From positions 1 through 8,096 of the forward strand of contig CAJCHQ010000251.1 in NCBI GenBank assembly GCA_903970295.1: a DNA stretch of 8,096 nucleotides, written 5' to 3'. This DNA is from Bryobacterales bacterium. GTDB lineage: Bacteria; Cyanobacteriota; Vampirovibrionia; Obscuribacterales; Obscuribacteraceae. Below the pieces are notes generated by a model. It ran no database searches, was not told where the DNA came from, and saw only the letters and a list, made by a program, of their open reading frames with translations. This document shows positions 1,497 to 7,937 of this stretch, piece by piece (within the stretch, counting starts at the first letter, position 1; every line of letters begins with the position of its first letter). The translations under genes were made by a program, and so were the position numbers.

Positions 1497-2540
1497 TTAG
1501 ACGGTCGGAATCTCGCTCTGAAACTTTGCCAGATCGTCGGCGACCAGAAGGCGGTAAGCCTTATCGTTGAGGAAGCGCACTGGCATAATCGGGTCAAACA
1601 ATCCTGTGCCCAAGCCAAGCAGACCAGTACCTTGCCTTATTGTCGGAAGACTGAGACGCTCGTCCCACTCCTCGCAACAAGCAATGCATGTCCAATGGGC
1701 TTGTGATTGAGCGCCGATGAAAAGTCCCGACCAGTCATACCCGGTGACCCGGAATTTTGTCGTGAGCTTAGTCAGCAATGCTGCCGGCAAGAATGGGGCG
1801 AGGTGGCTGAAGAAGCGATCGCGCGCAGCTTGTTGGGCTTTCCGCCAACGGTCATTTTCTTCCAGCATGAAATTGGCGATTTCCCAGCCGACGCTCATCT
1901 TCCTTTCGCTCAATGGTTCAACCAGGCGAAGAATCACATACATGCCGGCAGAGGCGCGAGCATTGGCTACTTGCTCGATCGGCTGGAGGACCACTCCTTG
2001 CTGCATGTATGAACTTAACGCCCATAGTTTCCCCTGCGGACCGCGGATGATTTTTTCTCCGTGTCCAAGGGGATCGCCTGCGGCTTTGGCGAATCTGCCA
2101 TAGGTCAGCATTAGATCGCCGGGTTGCATTGCTTCTGCCGGAGGATTGAGCCAAGTTGCAGCCGGCAGCCAGCGCTGTTTTCCGGTGCGCAAATATTGCT
2201 TCTTATGCAATTGGTATTGCAGGAAGACAAACGCCCAACTACCGAGAAGTGCCGCCGCCACCAACTTGAGCAGCCAGGCGCCGGGAGTGAAAAAGACGAT
2301 CACTGAAAGTGTGACGCCGATTATTGTTGGAATCACCAACTCTAGACGCGAAACACTGTCGTAATAAGTATGCAGGCAAGTGCGCAGCTCGAACAGTGTG
2401 ATTGCCAGCCATAGTCCGCTGATAATTGCGCAACCGGTGGAAAACTGGCCGTCGAAAGCATGATGGTGGGCGAATCGCCAGGTGAGCACGATCAATCCCA
2501 AATAGGAAAAGCTATGAGCGATTTTTAGTAGTCGATACAT
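1497..2540 (-). CDS. Multi-pass membrane protein with probable permuted papain (YiiX/NlpC-P60-like) domain
   Basis: A 347-aa protein from the ATG at 2538-2540. Among several in-frame starts (GTG 2621, ATG 2546, ATG 2540), only this one sits at proper distance (7 nt) from AAGG. The first 110 residues contain three or four hydrophobic segments (about 7-23, 34-53, 68-84, 88-108). The soluble part resembles permuted NlpC/P60 enzymes of the YiiX (peptidase C92) type: a P-G-D turn (140-142) opening the domain, a possible catalytic His160 in a GHGEK context, G-Y-D at 267-269, and a late Cys cluster (C285, C288, C289) in a WTCIACCEEW segment like the CSEL/V Cys of that family. His160 lacks the usual Ser/Thr-His-Val/Ala context, so activity is unproven. 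If active it would hydrolyse an amide or ester near the membrane. The gene is certain; the domain call is moderate. Confidence 0.6.
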   Translation of the reverse strand: MYRLLKIAHSFSYLGLIVLTWRFAHHHAFDGQFSTGCAIISGLWLAITLFELRTCLHTYYDSVSRLELVIPTIIGVTLSVIVFFTPGAWLLKLVAAALLGSWAFVFLQYQLHKKQYLRTGKQRWLPAATWLNPPAEAMQPGDLMLTYGRFAKAAGDPLGHGEKIIRGPQGKLWALSSYMQQGVVLQPIEQVANARASAGMYVILRLVEPLSERKMSVGWEIANFMLEENDRWRKAQQAARDRFFSHLAPFLPAALLTKLTTKFRVTGYDWSGLFIGAQSQAHWTCIACCEEWDERLSLPTIRQGTGLLGLGTGLFDPIMPVRFLNDKAYRLLVADDLAKFQSEIPTV

Positions 2541-2684
2541 ATACATCCCTTCTCGTCTGGACTTTGTCCAAACTAAGTCGATTTGTCGGTGTGTGGAAAG
2601 ACGAGATGCGCTATCCGACACCGTGTGGTCTGATAGTCGTTGGCAGCTGATTGGGTAATACTTTGGGGAAACGTGAGGTTCTGA

Positions 2685-3981: not shown

Positions 3982-4344
3982 TTAATTGGTCAAAAGCGCC
4001 GCTGCAATCGCGCACAAGGCTGGAACTGCCTGGACAAAGAAAATTTTGCGCGAGACAGTGGCGGCACCATAGAGTCCTGCGACGGTTACGCAACCAGCGA
4101 AAAAAAGTGTCAGCTGCTTGCCCAGTTCAGGTGGAGCAACCAGAGCCCAGAGCAATCCAGCGGCCAAAAAGCCATTGTATAAGCCTTGATTGCCGGCAAG
4201 CCTCTTCGTTCCCTCCGCCATTTCGGCAGTCATGCCGAACGCTTTCAAAGTCTTGGGAGCTGTCCAGCGAAACATCTCGAGGTAGAGAAAGTAAAAGTGG
4301 GCCAAAGCCACAACAGCGACGAGGACCTTGGTAATTATGGACAT
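3982..4344 (-). CDS. DUF1304 family membrane protein
   Basis: A 120-aa integral membrane protein of the DUF1304 family. The family pattern is clear: an N-terminal hydrophobic helix leading into HFYFLYLEMFRW (about 16-27), then F-G-M-T and a stretch of acidic and Lys residues, the hallmark NQGLYNGFLAAGLLWAL (about 52-68), a third helix, and the near-invariant GLYGAATVSRKIFFVQ segment (about 90-105) leading into the last helix. Four transmembrane helices fit the usual length of about 120 aa. No biochemical role is established for the family. Two adjacent ATGs exist (4347 and 4344); GGGAG (4351-4355) is 6 nt from the second and 3 nt from the first, so I take the second. It is on the same strand as the LRV gene, 145 bp downstream of it, and may be covered by an antisense transcript. 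Confidence 0.93.
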   Translation of the reverse strand: MSIITKVLVAVVALAHFYFLYLEMFRWTAPKTLKAFGMTAEMAEGTKRLAGNQGLYNGFLAAGLLWALVAPPELGKQLTLFFAGCVTVAGLYGAATVSRKIFFVQAVPALCAIAAALLTN

Positions 4345-4453
4345 CATGCGCTCCCAGTTAGATTCGCAGGCACTTCAGCCCCCGGCAGTTTAGCCCCGGG
4401 CACGCCACATTCTGGCAGAAATCTTCGAACCTGTCATTCTCAGTATCGGGATA

Positions 4454-4491
4454 GGATCGAAACATTTGTGCGTTTGCCGATCCGGGTTTTT
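4454..4491 (+). terminator. Rho-independent terminator read on the plus strand
   Basis: GGATCG (4454-4459) pairs with CGATCC (4478-4483). Inside it AAAC pairs with GTTT after a two-base bulge, leaving an 8-nt loop. GGG and five T (4487-4491) follow on the plus strand. In the minus direction, just after the LRV stop codon, no T-run follows, so the polarity fits plus-strand transcription although the hairpin could still protect the LRV mRNA end. Confidence 0.5.
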
Positions 4492-5239
4492 ACCTGGAAG
4501 CCGTGCGGCGATGTTCGTGAACGAACTTTTCAAAGTTGCCTACGTGCACCTCGGTTCTCGTCAATCGTGACACCGTTCGTTGAGAACGGCTGGCCACATA
4601 TGGATTTTCATCTTCCGCCAGGGCTGCCAAAATAGCGAGCGGGATGTTGTGATTTTCGGCAACCGCATATCTAACGTCGGCGTCCTCGTCCGCAGACAAT
4701 GCCGTTAGGGTCTCAAGGTAGGTGTGTACGTTGTCTGCGACTGCGGCCCTGACATGGGCGCATTCGTGCCTGGCTAGAGCGCCAAGCAAACTGGGGTTAT
4801 CGATTGTTTCGGCAATGCGTGAGAGCAGTCGCCAGGCTCCTTTTTCGGCTTGAGCGAGATTGGCGCGCTGCGACATTTGTAAGCGCCGCCACTCGATCAG
4901 GCTCGGCGCGAATTCGGATTTCTGTCCGTTGACCGGCTCGGAATGAGATTTTCGCGTCTTGCCTAATGACCAGTATTCGATTGCTGTTCGGCGAATCTGC
5001 TGCAAGTGTATGCGTTTCTCGCGGCTCAGTAATTTGCTGAGCGCTGGCGTATTTAGATAAACTGGCGCGATCTGCCGGGCTCTGGCAAATTTGCTGCCCG
5101 TTTGTCGCAGCTTCTTTATGGTCAGGTTGCTGAATATTTCTGTGTATGCCTTAAGCCTTGCGGAAATCTGGTTCAGGTAAAACATGACGATCCCCCGCGT
5201 TGATGGATAAAGGAGAATCCATATCAAGGTTGCCTGCAT
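4490..5239 (-). CDS. LRV (variant leucine-rich repeat) protein
   Basis: A 249-aa protein from the ATG at 5237-5239, chosen because AGAGGG (5247-5252) lies 7 nt upstream. Two other in-frame ATGs also have G-rich upstream sequence: 5284 (264 aa, GGGG at 5292-5295) and 5185 (231 aa, GGGGG at 5191-5195), so the start is uncertain. Residues about 144-223 hold three tandem units of roughly 26 aa of the LRV type: ...LLGALARHECAHVRAAVADN, ...LETLTALSADEDADVRYAVAEN, ...LAILAALAEDENPYVASRS. The D-x-x-V-R-x-x-V-A-x-N signature is typical of alpha/3-10-helical LRV solenoids, which usually mediate protein binding. The N-terminal 110 residues are basic and unassigned; with this start the first 20 are hydrophobic and could anchor the protein. 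There is no N-terminal 4Fe-4S cysteine cluster such as some LRV proteins carry. Confidence 0.85.
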   Translation of the reverse strand: MQATLIWILLYPSTRGIVMFYLNQISARLKAYTEIFSNLTIKKLRQTGSKFARARQIAPVYLNTPALSKLLSREKRIHLQQIRRTAIEYWSLGKTRKSHSEPVNGQKSEFAPSLIEWRRLQMSQRANLAQAEKGAWRLLSRIAETIDNPSLLGALARHECAHVRAAVADNVHTYLETLTALSADEDADVRYAVAENHNIPLAILAALAEDENPYVASRSQRTVSRLTRTEVHVGNFEKFVHEHRRTASR

Positions 5240-5355
5240 CCATGATCCCTCTAAACTTGCTGCGGCGGGTATGCAATAACCCATAGATTCACCCCGATTA
5301 GCATATATAAAGTGTTTCTCCGGGCTGCTGGGCTAGGGTTTTAGATCTCCGCTAG

Positions 5356-5521: not shown

Positions 5522-6529
5522 TCAACGGCCGCGGCAAGGTACGAGGTTGTTGGCGAATTGCAGGGCGCAGGCTTGCCATGAGTGTGTCAGAGCGAATTCG
5601 CGACAAGCCAAGGGTGAGAGTTTGAGAGCTTTTTCAGCGGCTAGTTGCAAATTCTCGTCGAGGCTGCCGACTGTGTCGGAAGTGATCACATCGATCGGAC
5701 CGGTGACAGGATAGGCAGCGACTGGAAGTCCTGAAGCGAGAGCTTCAAGTAAGACCAGTCCGTAAGTGTCACTCTTGCTGGGAAAGACGAAGACGTCGCT
5801 GGCGGCATAATATCGGGCAAGTTCTTCTCCCGTTTTCTGACCGACAAAGTGCACGTCCGGATACTCTCTTTTCAGTTCAGCCAGCTGCGGACCATCCCCG
5901 ACTACCAGTTTGCTTCCTGGTAAAACGAGAGAGAGGAAAGCGCTGATGTTCTTTTCCACCGAGACTCGCCCGACATTCAGCCATATTGGCCGGGGTAAAT
6001 GGAGAAAGCCTTTGTCAGGGTTGGGTGCAAATAAGGCAGAGTCCACTCCCCTCGACCAGCGTACGATGTTTCGGAGACCGTGATCTTTGAGTTCTCGCTC
6101 CAGGGTTGGGGTTGCCACCATCACCGCCGAGGATGGTGCATGGAAGCGACGGACAAAAGCGTAAGTCAGTCCTTGTGGCACCCGAAATTGATGATGCAAG
6201 TATTCGGGAAATTTGGTGTGATACGCGGTTGTGAAAAGCAGGCTACGATCCAGGCAATATCGTCGAGCAACACGTCCCAAAGGTCCTTCGACCGAAATGT
6301 GAATCGCATCGGGGTTGAAGGCGTCGAGCATTGCTGGCAATTTTGTACCGGCGTTGAGGCTTAGTCTGATTTCACTGTAACCGGGGCAGGGTATGGTTCT
6401 GAACAAACCTGGAGTGAAGACCGTGACTTCGTGCCCTGTGCGGCGAAGTTCATCGACTGTAGATGAGAGGGTACGAACGACGCCGTTTACCTGGGGAAAC
6501 CAGGCGTCAGTAACTATGGCGACTCGCAT
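5522..6529 (-). CDS. agt: GT4 glycosyltransferase, probable diacylglycerol glycosyltransferase Agt
   Basis: A 335-aa GT-B fold glycosyltransferase of family GT4. The N-domain shows the glycine-rich acceptor loop (FPQVNGVVRT, about 11-20), EGPLG (81-85) and HTKFPEY (104-110). The C-domain shows SRGVD (159-163), NVGRVSVEKN (185-194), GDGP (211-214), and the donor motif SKSDTYGLVLLEAL, with D254 and E262 in the E/D-x7-E spacing that binds the nucleotide sugar. It belongs to the SqdX/MgtA/Agt-like group. Its position directly after plcP is the known arrangement of Agt, which transfers glucose or glucuronate to diacylglycerol at the inner membrane leaflet under phosphate limitation. The ATG at 6527-6529 has AGGAG (6536-6540) 6 nt upstream. 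The gap to plcP is 81 bp, consistent with one operon. Sugar specificity cannot be read; a mannosyl- or sulfoquinovosyltransferase is the main alternative. Confidence 0.85.
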   Translation of the reverse strand: MRVAIVTDAWFPQVNGVVRTLSSTVDELRRTGHEVTVFTPGLFRTIPCPGYSEIRLSLNAGTKLPAMLDAFNPDAIHISVEGPLGRVARRYCLDRSLLFTTAYHTKFPEYLHHQFRVPQGLTYAFVRRFHAPSSAVMVATPTLERELKDHGLRNIVRWSRGVDSALFAPNPDKGFLHLPRPIWLNVGRVSVEKNISAFLSLVLPGSKLVVGDGPQLAELKREYPDVHFVGQKTGEELARYYAASDVFVFPSKSDTYGLVLLEALASGLPVAAYPVTGPIDVITSDTVGSLDENLQLAAEKALKLSPLACREFALTHSWQACALQFANNLVPCRGR

Positions 6530-6574
6530 GAGAGGCTCCTGCGTCAGTTGATTGATGAAGATCAGTTGTGGGTG

Positions 6575-6594
6575 GCGACTGAATAATCAGTCGC
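6575..6594 (-). other. Intercistronic hairpin between plcP and agt
   Basis: GCGACTGA (6575-6582) and TCAGTCGC (6587-6594) form a perfect 8-bp stem with a 4-nt loop in the 81-bp gap. No U-run follows in the minus direction, so it is more likely an mRNA-processing or stabilising stem tuning the PlcP:Agt ratio than a full terminator. Confidence 0.5.
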
Positions 6595-6610
6595 ATGTGG
6601 TGCGGGCAAG

Positions 6611-7420
6611 TCAGTCACAAGTTGAGAGCACAGGCTCTGCGATTGTTTGTGCAGGAGCCATTTGCCAGTGGATCAGATGCAAGCTGCCGTCGAAATCTTC
6701 GACCAGAGCACTGCAACTCTCCACCCAGTCACCGTCGTTACAGTAGAGAATGCCGTTGATTTCACGCATCTCGGGATGATGAATGTGTCCGCAGACGACA
6801 CCATCAGCCCCCCTTCGCCTTGCTTCTTCCGCAAGCGCGAATTCGAAGTCACTGATGAAGTTGACGGCATGCTTGACGCGCCGCTTCAGATACATGGAAA
6901 GCGACCAGTAAGGCAATCCGAGTCGGCGCCGCAGTGTGTTCAATCCGCCATTCAGGCGCAAGGCGAAGCTGTAGGCGCTGTCGCCAAGAAGAGCGAGCCA
7001 TTTGGCATAATGCATGACGACATCGAACTGGTCGCCATGAATTACCAGAAGGTGCTTGCCATCAGCGGTTTCGTGAATGAGATCGGGCACAATCTCGATG
7101 TCTCCAACGTTTAAACCGAGAAAGTCGCGAGCAAATTCATCGTGGTTGCCGGGAATATAAAATGCCTTCGTGCCCTTTCGTACCTTGCGCAGAATCTTTT
7201 GCAGAATGTCATTGTGTTCTTGCAGCCAGTACCAGGCTTTCCTCAGTCTCCAACCGTCGACGATATCGCCGACGAGATATAAAAATTGGCTGTCATTGTG
7301 GCGTAAGAAGTCGAGAAGCAAGGGCGATTTGCAACCGCGGGTGCCGATATGAGTGTCCGAGATCCAAATGCTGCGCCATTGCCGGGGAGCAGTGCCAAAG
7401 GCAGCCTGAAGGTTTTCCAT
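6611..7420 (-). CDS. plcP: PlcP-type phospholipase C (calcineurin-like metallophosphoesterase)
   Basis: A 269-aa metallophosphoesterase with all metal-binding motifs of the calcineurin-like fold: D22-x-H24 (SDTHIG), G51-D52-xx-D55, G91-N-H-D-E95, H128-G-D, and G211-H-I-H-H215. Generic annotation would call it LpxH-like (UDP-2,3-diacylglucosamine diphosphatase), but the segments TRGCKSPLLLDFL, GDIVDGWRLRKAWYW, ILRKVRKGTKAFYIPGNHDE, LGLPYWSLSMYLK and GILYCNDGDWVESCSALVE match the PlcP group, described in Sinorhizobium as a phosphate-starvation phospholipase C. PlcP cleaves phosphatidylcholine, phosphatidylethanolamine or similar lipids to diacylglycerol, recovering phosphate. The protein has no signal peptide, so it acts at the cytoplasmic membrane face. 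The ATG at 7418-7420 has AAGGAG (7427-7432) 6 nt upstream. A Pho-like 8-mer lies just before it and Pho-box clusters lie further upstream. It is first in the pair with agt. Confidence 0.92.
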   Translation of the reverse strand: MENLQAAFGTAPRQWRSIWISDTHIGTRGCKSPLLLDFLRHNDSQFLYLVGDIVDGWRLRKAWYWLQEHNDILQKILRKVRKGTKAFYIPGNHDEFARDFLGLNVGDIEIVPDLIHETADGKHLLVIHGDQFDVVMHYAKWLALLGDSAYSFALRLNGGLNTLRRRLGLPYWSLSMYLKRRVKHAVNFISDFEFALAEEARRRGADGVVCGHIHHPEMREINGILYCNDGDWVESCSALVEDFDGSLHLIHWQMAPAQTIAEPVLSTCD

Positions 7421-7438
7421 TGTCGACTCCTTGAGATG

Positions 7439-7446
7439 TGGTTAAG
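7439..7446 (-). promoter_or_regulatory. Single Pho-box-like 8-mer beside the plcP ribosome-binding site
   Basis: CTTAACCA on the minus strand (TGGTTAAG, 7439-7446) fits the PyTTAAPyPy(A/T) half-site at all positions, 6 nt upstream of the AAGGAG of plcP. No good second repeat lies 11 bp away on either side, so alone it is weak evidence of binding; bound protein here would block transcription rather than activate it. Confidence 0.3.
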
Positions 7447-7576
7447 TTTGACTGGTGGCGAGCCTCTGCATGCAGCATCTGTGCGTCATGACGATGCGGC
7501 AGAAACTAACCGGGGAAAAACCAGGGAATTGAGTTTAAGAAGAAGTCGGTGGCGTAATTGAGCTGAGTGAGATACG

Positions 7577-7601
7577 ACAGGTGAGAAGGGTTACAGGTGA
7601 G
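7577..7601. repeat. 9-bp direct repeat, 16-bp period
   Basis: ACAGGTGAG occurs at 7577-7585 and 7593-7601, about 160-180 bp upstream of plcP. It may be an operator for plcP, but it matches no site that I can name. Confidence 0.3.
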
Positions 7602-7713
7602 ACTGACTGCAACTTAGTCGGAACAGATAAGCCGGCCAAAGAGAAACTAGTAACGAAAAATACTTCGCAATGATCTCGCAGAGCCATCCATTTACTCAGG
7701 AGCAGCGGCTATC

Positions 7714-7750
7714 GGCGCGGCAATCTGCCGCGCCAAATATATTTGGGCGC
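7714..7750. other. Two overlapping, mutually exclusive hairpins
   Basis: Hairpin 1 is GGCGCGGCA (7714-7722) with TGCCGCGCC (7726-7734), nine perfect pairs around a 3-nt loop. Hairpin 2 uses GCGCCAAATA (7730-7739) with TATTTGG and CGC (7740-7750), with one bulged G. They share 7730-7734, so only one can form at a time. A weaker outer pair GAGCAG (7700-7705) / CTGCTC (7751-7756) encloses both. No T-run follows on either strand. It may be a leader switch, a REP-like palindrome or a protein site. Confidence 0.5.
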
Positions 7751-7794
7751 CTGCTCAGTTTAGTTGCCTGAAGATTATTTACGGAGGCATACCA

Positions 7795-7851
7795 GTGTGG
7801 AAGTTCGCGCCGCTGGCCGAGCCAAAAGCTCGATGGAAACCAGGTCTGTGA
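7795..7851 (+). CDS. Possible 18-codon leader peptide
   Basis: A GTG at 7795-7797 preceded by GGAGG (7783-7787) at 7-nt spacing, the strongest ribosome-binding site in this stretch, opens a frame of 18 codons reading MWKFAPLAEPKARWKPGL and ending at TGA 7849-7851. Its end overlaps the first degenerate Pho repeat. The product has two Trp and no recognisable motif. Frames this short arise by chance, so support rests only on the ribosome-binding site. Confidence 0.22.
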   Translation: MWKFAPLAEPKARWKPGL

Positions 7852-7882
7852 GGGGTTAAGGTGTGGTTAAATGGCGGTTCCG
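7842..7882 (-). promoter_or_regulatory. Pho-box cluster A, cyanobacterial type
   Basis: Two strong 8-bp units, TGGTTAAA (7864-7871) and GGGTTAAG (7853-7860), are spaced exactly 11 bp apart. They read TTTAACCA and CTTAACCC on the minus strand. Degenerate units continue the 11-bp period on both sides (CGGTTCCG at 7875, AGGTCTGT at 7842), all four sharing GGT at positions 2-4. Cyanobacterial SphR/PhoB boxes are PyTTAAPyPy(A/T) repeats with 3-bp spacers. Orientation points toward plcP, though about 430 bp from its start codon. Confidence 0.6.
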
Positions 7883-7918
7883 AAGCGTAATCAAAATGCA
7901 CTCATTCGCTGCCGCGTC

Positions 7919-7937
7919 TGGTTAAGAAGTGGTTATG
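7919..7937 (-). promoter_or_regulatory. Pho-box cluster B, two repeats
   Basis: TGGTTAAG (7919-7926) and TGGTTATG (7930-7937) are again 11 bp apart, reading CTTAACCA and CATAACCA on the minus strand. The first is exactly 55 bp (5 x 11) from TGGTTAAA of cluster A, placing both clusters on the same helical face. It lies about 130 bp upstream of the plus-strand gene starting at 8066 and could serve it, plcP or both. Confidence 0.55.

What the first reader, a model, noticed from the sequence alone, without database searches (positions are those of the whole stretch)
5522..7420. plcP-agt phospholipid-remodelling pair, possibly in a cyanobacterial relative
Seen: a PlcP-type metallophosphoesterase with all metal motifs, followed on the same strand after 81 bp by an Agt-like GT4 glycosyltransferase. 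Known: PlcP releases diacylglycerol from phospholipids and Agt glycosylates it during phosphate starvation, described mainly in Proteobacteria (Sinorhizobium, Agrobacterium, marine heterotrophs). Inferred: the nearby Pho repeats are of cyanobacterial type, so this would be the same lipid-renovation module wired to a cyanobacterial-type phosphate regulator, possibly by gene transfer.
Basis: partly seen in the sequence, partly recalled or inferred. Interest (0 to 1): 0.75.

Follow-up and report, generated by a model that had tools for sequence, protein, structure and literature searches.

The report
Phosphate-saving lipid gene pair in Obscuribacterales
This stretch carries two neighbouring genes that look like a known bacterial kit for swapping phosphate-containing membrane lipids for sugar lipids, here in a non-photosynthetic relative of cyanobacteria and placed behind DNA repeats that resemble the cyanobacterial phosphate-starvation switch.

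Summary
On the minus strand, a PlcP-type metallophosphoesterase (6611-7420) is followed after 81 bp by an Agt-like GT4 glycosyltransferase (5522-6529). The phosphoesterase is PlcP-like, not LpxH: GNHD where E. coli LpxH has GNRD, scores far below LpxH cut-offs, 53.5% identity to a Sinorhizobium meliloti PlcP-type protein. Nearest named relatives are Obscuribacterales (Melainabacteria) MAGs, then Alphaproteobacteria. Close plcP homologues occur in 9 of 53 Obscuribacterales genomes searched, in no further genome of 289 drawn from the class, and in 386 drawn from the phylum only in the centre genome plus one distant copy. This suggests acquisition by one order; donor, direction and number of events are unproven. 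The new result is regulatory: tandem CTTAACC-type (SphR-like, 11-bp period) box pairs lie upstream of plcP, correctly oriented, in 10 of 10 members (window plus nine genomes) against 0 of 65 other plcP loci; where agt is divergent (2 genomes) it has its own pair. Against a simple Pho-regulon reading: pairs rather than triplets, pst-like genes mostly lack them, and no response regulator passes the PhoB cut-off. Verdict: a known module in a new host lineage with cyanobacterial-style wiring; enzyme activities and phosphate response are inferred.

The parts
6611..7420 (-). plcP: PlcP-type calcineurin-like metallophosphoesterase, 269 aa; predicted phospholipase C releasing diacylglycerol from phospholipids
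   Evidence: best fold matches are LpxH structures at about 20% identity
5522..6529 (-). agt: GT4 glycosyltransferase, 335 aa; predicted to glycosylate diacylglycerol (MGDG and/or GADG; which one cannot be predicted here)
7853..7871 (-). SphR-like box pair 2: TTTAACCA cac CTTAACCC, 432 bp before the plcP start, oriented towards plcP
7919..7937 (-). SphR-like box pair 1: CATAACCA ctt CTTAACCA, 66 bp (6 x 11) from pair 2, same orientation
7421..7852 (-). long leader between boxes and plcP; no ORF of 60 aa or more lies wholly within it on the plcP strand (two of 40 and 50 aa do start in the 517 nt before plcP); holds a GC-rich inverted repeat at 7714-7734

Best explanation
A plcP-agt membrane-lipid renovation operon in an Obscuribacterales-type (non-photosynthetic cyanobacterial) genome. 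Under phosphate shortage an OmpR/PhoB-family regulator is thought to bind the CTTAACC box pairs and switch on plcP and agt. PlcP then removes the phosphate-bearing head group from membrane phospholipids, leaving diacylglycerol, and Agt adds a sugar from a UDP-sugar, giving a phosphate-free glycolipid. Shown here: the genes, their order, their family placement and the conserved boxes. Inferred: enzyme activities, phosphate control, and acquisition of the module by Obscuribacterales from a proteobacterium-like source.
For: LpxH models score 31.9 against a cut-off of 190.35 and 31 against 134. GNHD, not GNRD as in E. coli LpxH. 53.5% identity to an S. meliloti plcP-type protein, which lies with the window in a group of 22 rows (support 81/83) that leaves out only LpxH and one distant row. 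Of 66 other loci with both genes, 64 have the order plcP then agt. lpxB is in 50 of 53 genomes of the order while close plcP is in 9, so plcP is not the lipid A enzyme. Boxes: 10 of 10 members versus 0 of 65 others; own pairs on the divergent agt of G001 and G044; background 6 pairs of at least 12 bits in 195,165 bases, both strands. Published: SAR11 Agt expressed in E. coli makes MGDG and GADG (PMC4796936), a Methylosinus plcP-agt mutant loses GADG (PMC9239053), and P. aeruginosa plcP, agt1 and agt2 mutants lose or lower MGDG/GADG (PMC8528852); passages read.
Against: No expression or lipid data. Two boxes per site, not the three or more described for SphR. pst-like PF12849 loci in the nine genomes: a pair of at least 12 bits in 1 of 10 loci, one of the ten having no upstream DNA. 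No regulator over the PhoB cut-off in 9 of 9 genomes, though only 2 of 14 control genomes pass it. 3 of 9 plcP genomes have no close agt: G017, G040 and G030, whose contig ends just past plcP. G017 also has a strong pair in the opposite direction.
Confidence: 0.8

Rival explanations
1. The phosphoesterase is the lipid A enzyme LpxH (UDP-2,3-diacylglucosamine diphosphatase), as many source annotations name its relatives, and the glycosyltransferase is an envelope polysaccharide enzyme.
For: Source names; best fold matches are LpxH structures; no LpxH over the cut-off in the nine genomes, the only six weaker matches being the plcP genes themselves.
Against: Scores far below LpxH cut-offs; GNHD instead of GNRD; patchy, 9 of 53, while lpxB is in 50 of 53; beside agt and behind conserved boxes; groups with the S. 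meliloti protein.
Confidence: 0.05
2. A genuine plcP-agt module, but the CTTAACC pairs bind a different OmpR-family regulator, so the trigger is not phosphate.
For: Pairs rather than triplets; pst-like genes mostly lack them; other strict matches lie before amidohydrolase, CAP-domain, DUF2207 and response-regulator genes; 19 to 55 PhoB-like regulators per genome at E<=1e-45.
Against: Box letters and spacing fit the SphR consensus CTTAACCT with 3-bp linkers; G001 pstS-like gene has a 14.3-bit pair in the right orientation; the module's published function is phosphate-linked.
Confidence: 0.2
3. Vertical inheritance: the pair is old in the cyanobacterial phylum and was lost elsewhere, rather than acquired by Obscuribacterales.
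For: In the reduced Agt tree the Obscuribacterales rows lie outside the 51 mainly proteobacterial rows (support 89), so nesting inside Proteobacteria is not shown.
Against: No close plcP in the 289 class genomes beyond the nine of the order, and one distant copy (41%) besides G001 in 386 phylum genomes; up to 67% (PlcP) and 64% (Agt) identity to named Alphaproteobacteria.
Confidence: 0.15

Closest known systems
plcP-agt lipid remodelling module of SAR11, Agrobacterium (agt), Methylosinus and Pseudomonas (PMC4796936, PMC9239053, PMC8528852)
   Same: Gene order plcP then agt, metal motifs, GT4 partner, short gap.
   Different: Host is a non-photosynthetic cyanobacterial lineage; CTTAACC-type box pairs (best pair about 270-450 nt before plcP in the ten members), against 0 of 65 other plcP loci.
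SphR Pho boxes of Synechocystis and other cyanobacteria (PMC1906773)
   Same: 8-bp CTTAACCT-like units with 3-bp linkers, 11-bp period, upstream and in gene orientation.
   Different: Two units per site here, with two sites 66 bp apart in the window; the target is a lipid module rather than pst or phoA.
LpxH (UDP-2,3-diacylglucosamine diphosphatase)
   Same: Calcineurin-like fold and metal motifs.
   Different: GNRD in E. coli LpxH, GNHD here; model scores far below cut-off.

Membership tests
PlcP phospholipase C family | calcineurin-type metal motifs DxH, GD, GNHD, HGD, GHxH | tested here: met
PlcP phospholipase C family | groups with a PlcP-type protein of S. meliloti and apart from LpxH | tested here: met
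   (group support 81/83); that this S. meliloti protein is the characterised SMc00171 is recalled, not shown
PlcP phospholipase C family | phospholipase C activity releasing diacylglycerol | not testable with these tools
   needs an assay
Agt GT4 diacylglycerol glycosyltransferase | GT4 domains, conserved acidic-x7-E donor motif (D254, E262), close homology to agt genes beside plcP | tested here: met
   the motif name is recalled; no characterised Agt sequence was available for direct comparison
Agt GT4 diacylglycerol glycosyltransferase | makes MGDG or GADG from diacylglycerol | not testable with these tools
   needs an assay
LpxH | score above TIGR01854 / PRK05340 cut-off | tested here: not met
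   31.9 vs 190.35 and 31 vs 134 bits
SphR-type Pho box | 8-bp CTTAACCT-like tandem repeats with 3-bp linkers | tested here: met
   two pairs
SphR-type Pho box | at least three tandem repeats | tested here: not met
   third unit weak in both sites; best triplet reached by 68 of 2000 simulated sequences
SphR-type Pho box | bound by SphR/PhoB and induced by low phosphate | not testable with these tools
   no experimental data; no regulator over the PhoB cut-off in 9 of 9 relatives, a strict cut-off that 2 of 14 control genomes pass

The most novel reading that the evidence does not exclude
A non-photosynthetic branch of the cyanobacterial phylum captured a proteobacterial lipid-renovation module and gave it a nearly private promoter cassette (SphR-like box pair, a TAG...GGTG block and a CGCTAGC...GCG inverted repeat) that moves as a unit: in G044 it recurs on the separated agt gene and on an unrelated metallophosphoesterase.
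Probability: 0.35. Interest if true: 0.6.

Novelty: new variant of a known kind. Interest (0 to 1): 0.45.

Why it matters
PlcP was reported as largely absent from cyanobacterial genomes (PMC4796936, passage read). If this reading is right, one non-photosynthetic order of the phylum, whose named member Ca. Obscuribacter phosphatis carries polyphosphate genes (PMC4040986, passage read), has the heterotroph route to phosphate-free membranes and controls it with a cyanobacterial-style switch. That makes the re-wiring of an acquired pathway testable by comparing promoters.

Full report
What is there. The window carries two minus-strand genes: plcP (6611-7420, 269 aa) and, 81 bp downstream, agt (5522-6529, 335 aa). 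Pfam places the first in the calcineurin-like phosphoesterases and the second in GT4 glycosyltransferases, above cut-off. No tRNA and no Rfam family at gathering score was found. GC content over the pair (about 0.51-0.55) does not stand out from the rest of the window (0.44-0.55).

Host and distribution. Agt has a 99% identical fragment on a 1,011-bp metagenome contig; its best named relatives are an 'Oculatellaceae cyanobacterium' MAG (72%), a Candidatus Obscuribacterales MAG (64%), and SZAS LIN-3 and REEB67 (62% each), both titled Cyanobacteria (L002). Relatives of another window protein (1497-2621) include a Candidatus Melainabacteria and a 'Chroococcales' MAG. No marker gene lies in the window, so the assignment to Obscuribacterales or a close sister rests on these proteins. 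Searches centred on the L002 genome (G001): PlcP in 10 of 53 genomes of its order (9 at 56-72% identity, one at 32%); Agt in 10 of 53 (6 at 62-64%, 4 at 45-50%); PlcP in 9 of 289 genomes drawn from the class, the same nine; PlcP in 2 of 386 drawn from the phylum, G001 itself and a 41% copy. Completeness and contamination of these MAGs were not told, so absence in any one is soft and a mis-binned contig cannot be ruled out in each. A published survey says PlcP homologues are 'largely absent' from cyanobacteria (PMC4796936, passage).

Gene order. Of the 79 genome loci other than L002 brought in by Agt, 66 also show plcP and 13 do not; in 64 of the 66 plcP precedes agt on the same strand within 307 bp, L040 and L058 being the exceptions. 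Among the nine Obscuribacterales genomes, four have the operon order (G021, G048, G049, G011), two have agt divergent (G001 at 666 bp, G044 at about 3.5 kb), and three show no close agt (G017, G040, and G030, whose contig ends just beyond plcP). Apart from plcP and agt no neighbour is widely shared; small 109-129 aa proteins recur in four genomes.

Trees. Window PlcP and Agt each fall in a clade with L002 and top database hits (SH-aLRT 99 for PlcP; 95-96 for Agt). Most other Obscuribacterales form a second clade (100 and 99); the G030 PlcP stands apart. For the clade tests I used reduced sets of 55 and 69 rows, leaving out long-branched, near-identical and some database rows of the 83 and 85 first used. 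Holding all Obscuribacterales PlcP together is not rejected (p-AU 0.581; likelihood 3.16 higher); for Agt they are together in the best tree with weak support (73). In the larger PlcP tree the second clade instead fell among Magnetospirillum-like rows on a long branch. Acquisition from a proteobacterium-like source is likely from the distribution, but neither donor, direction nor number of events is shown.

Boxes. I built a matrix from the 30 sites in Table 1 of PMC1906773 (section read; passages). In the window the two best pairs are at 7853-7871 and 7919-7937 on the minus strand, oriented towards plcP, 66 bp apart (six 11-bp periods). The best pair is reached in 1 of 200 simulated windows and 5 of 2000 simulated upstream regions; the best triplet is not significant (26 of 200, 68 of 2000). 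A consensus search with up to two mismatches agrees (3 matches, expected 0.13). Across relatives, a forward pair of at least 12 bits lies within 600 nt upstream of plcP in 10 of 10 (window plus nine genomes; best pair 270-451 nt before the start as extrapolated from the match) and in 0 of 65 other loci with at least 150 nt upstream (one of 66, L044, was dropped for lack of it; many of the others are Proteobacteria, whose DNA may be richer in GC, which lowers the chance of such a motif). In reverse, 2 of 10 and 2 of 65 have a pair; of the two, G001's belongs to the divergent agt and G017's is unexplained. Controls: 0 of 168 tiles of L002 and window DNA and 196 of 5000 simulated regions; 6 pairs in 195,165 bases on both strands around pst-like and PhoB-like genes of six genomes. 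The ten are related, so they are not ten independent draws, but their leaders align poorly outside the box region and the gene start. In G001 and G044, where agt is divergent, agt has its own forward pair (17.1 and 15.3 bits); the four distant agt-like genes (G051, G052, G053, G007) have none of 12 bits.

Limits of the Pho reading. The strict pattern YWTAACCNNNNYWTAACC occurs 15 times in the nine genomes (reversed-pattern control 10), 5 of them at plcP. Of the ten others, six downstream ORFs were scanned: two amidohydrolases, DUF2207, a CAP-domain protein, a response regulator, and one without a Pfam family that reads as a metallophosphoesterase. Of ten pst-like loci one (G001) has a pair of at least 12 bits; one of the ten has no upstream DNA. 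The wider stretches show that pair again and five more whose genes I did not identify; one, in G040, lies between a PhoB-like regulator and a divergent ORF. PhoB-like regulators abound (19 to 55 per genome) but none passes the curated cut-off, which only 2 of 14 control genomes pass. PhoD is in 1 of 9. So the boxes are cyanobacterial in letters and period, but their regulator and trigger are inferred.

Promoter cassette. After the pair, most plcP promoters share, by eye, a block like TAGTGCCGTATTTGGTG and a CGCTAGCT..CGCGAGC inverted repeat; both recur before the divergent agt and before a metallophosphoesterase in G044. The block is not seen in the window or G001, though G001 keeps the inverted repeat. 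A pattern made from these sites hits 15 places in nine genomes (control 11); 8 have a box pair (plcP in six genomes, G044 agt, G044 phosphoesterase) and 7 do not. The pattern was designed on these sites, so only the lack of further pair-bearing hits is informative.

Verdict. A known enzyme module (shown by others in SAR11, Methylosinus and Pseudomonas; passages read), in a lineage where it was not expected, with conserved cyanobacterial-style boxes. Ordinary in chemistry, moderately interesting in regulation and distribution.

Noticed in passing
window 7714-7734: GC-rich inverted repeat (9 pairs, 8 of them G-C) inside the plcP leader; terminator-like on the plus strand.
   Followed up: no
window 7853-7937: The two box pairs are spaced 66 bp, six periods of 11 bp, so they may lie on the same helical face.
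   Followed up: no
window 1497-2621 (-): Protein of 374 aa without any Pfam family; 174 homologues at E<=1e-5, named ones among the 120 listed from a Melainabacteria and a Chroococcales-titled MAG.
   Followed up: partly
window 4490-5284 (-): Leucine-rich-repeat-variant (LRV) protein with HEAT similarity, downstream of agt.
   Followed up: no
window 3982-4347 (-): DUF1304 protein.
   Followed up: no
L122:1985-2986 (G044): A second metallophosphoesterase (PHROG 221) behind the same box pair and promoter block as plcP.
   Followed up: partly
L124, L130 (G049, G011) and L123 (G048): CTTAACC pairs before amidohydrolase-type genes; Pfam Amidohydro_3 checked for L124 and L130 only, L123 by eye.
   Followed up: partly
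L129:1536-2282 (G049): An OmpR-family response regulator with TTTAACC repeats just before it, possibly self-regulated; best NCBIfam match RppA, below cut-off.
   Followed up: partly
L174:3056-3074 (G040): A 12.2-bit box pair between a PhoB-like regulator gene and a divergent 571-aa ORF.
   Followed up: no
L089:1311-1329 (G017): A 15.9-bit box pair in the direction away from plcP, in addition to the forward pair.
   Followed up: no
L166, L167, L169, L170: Small 109-129 aa proteins without Pfam family recur near plcP in four of nine genomes.
   Followed up: partly
L171:8209-9321 (G017): In place of agt, plcP is followed by a 370-aa protein with a sub-threshold Metallophos match.
   Followed up: partly
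plasmid listing, (H31-H33): agt beside an LpxH-named gene on three Pseudomonas aeruginosa plasmids: the pair is also found on plasmids.
   Followed up: no
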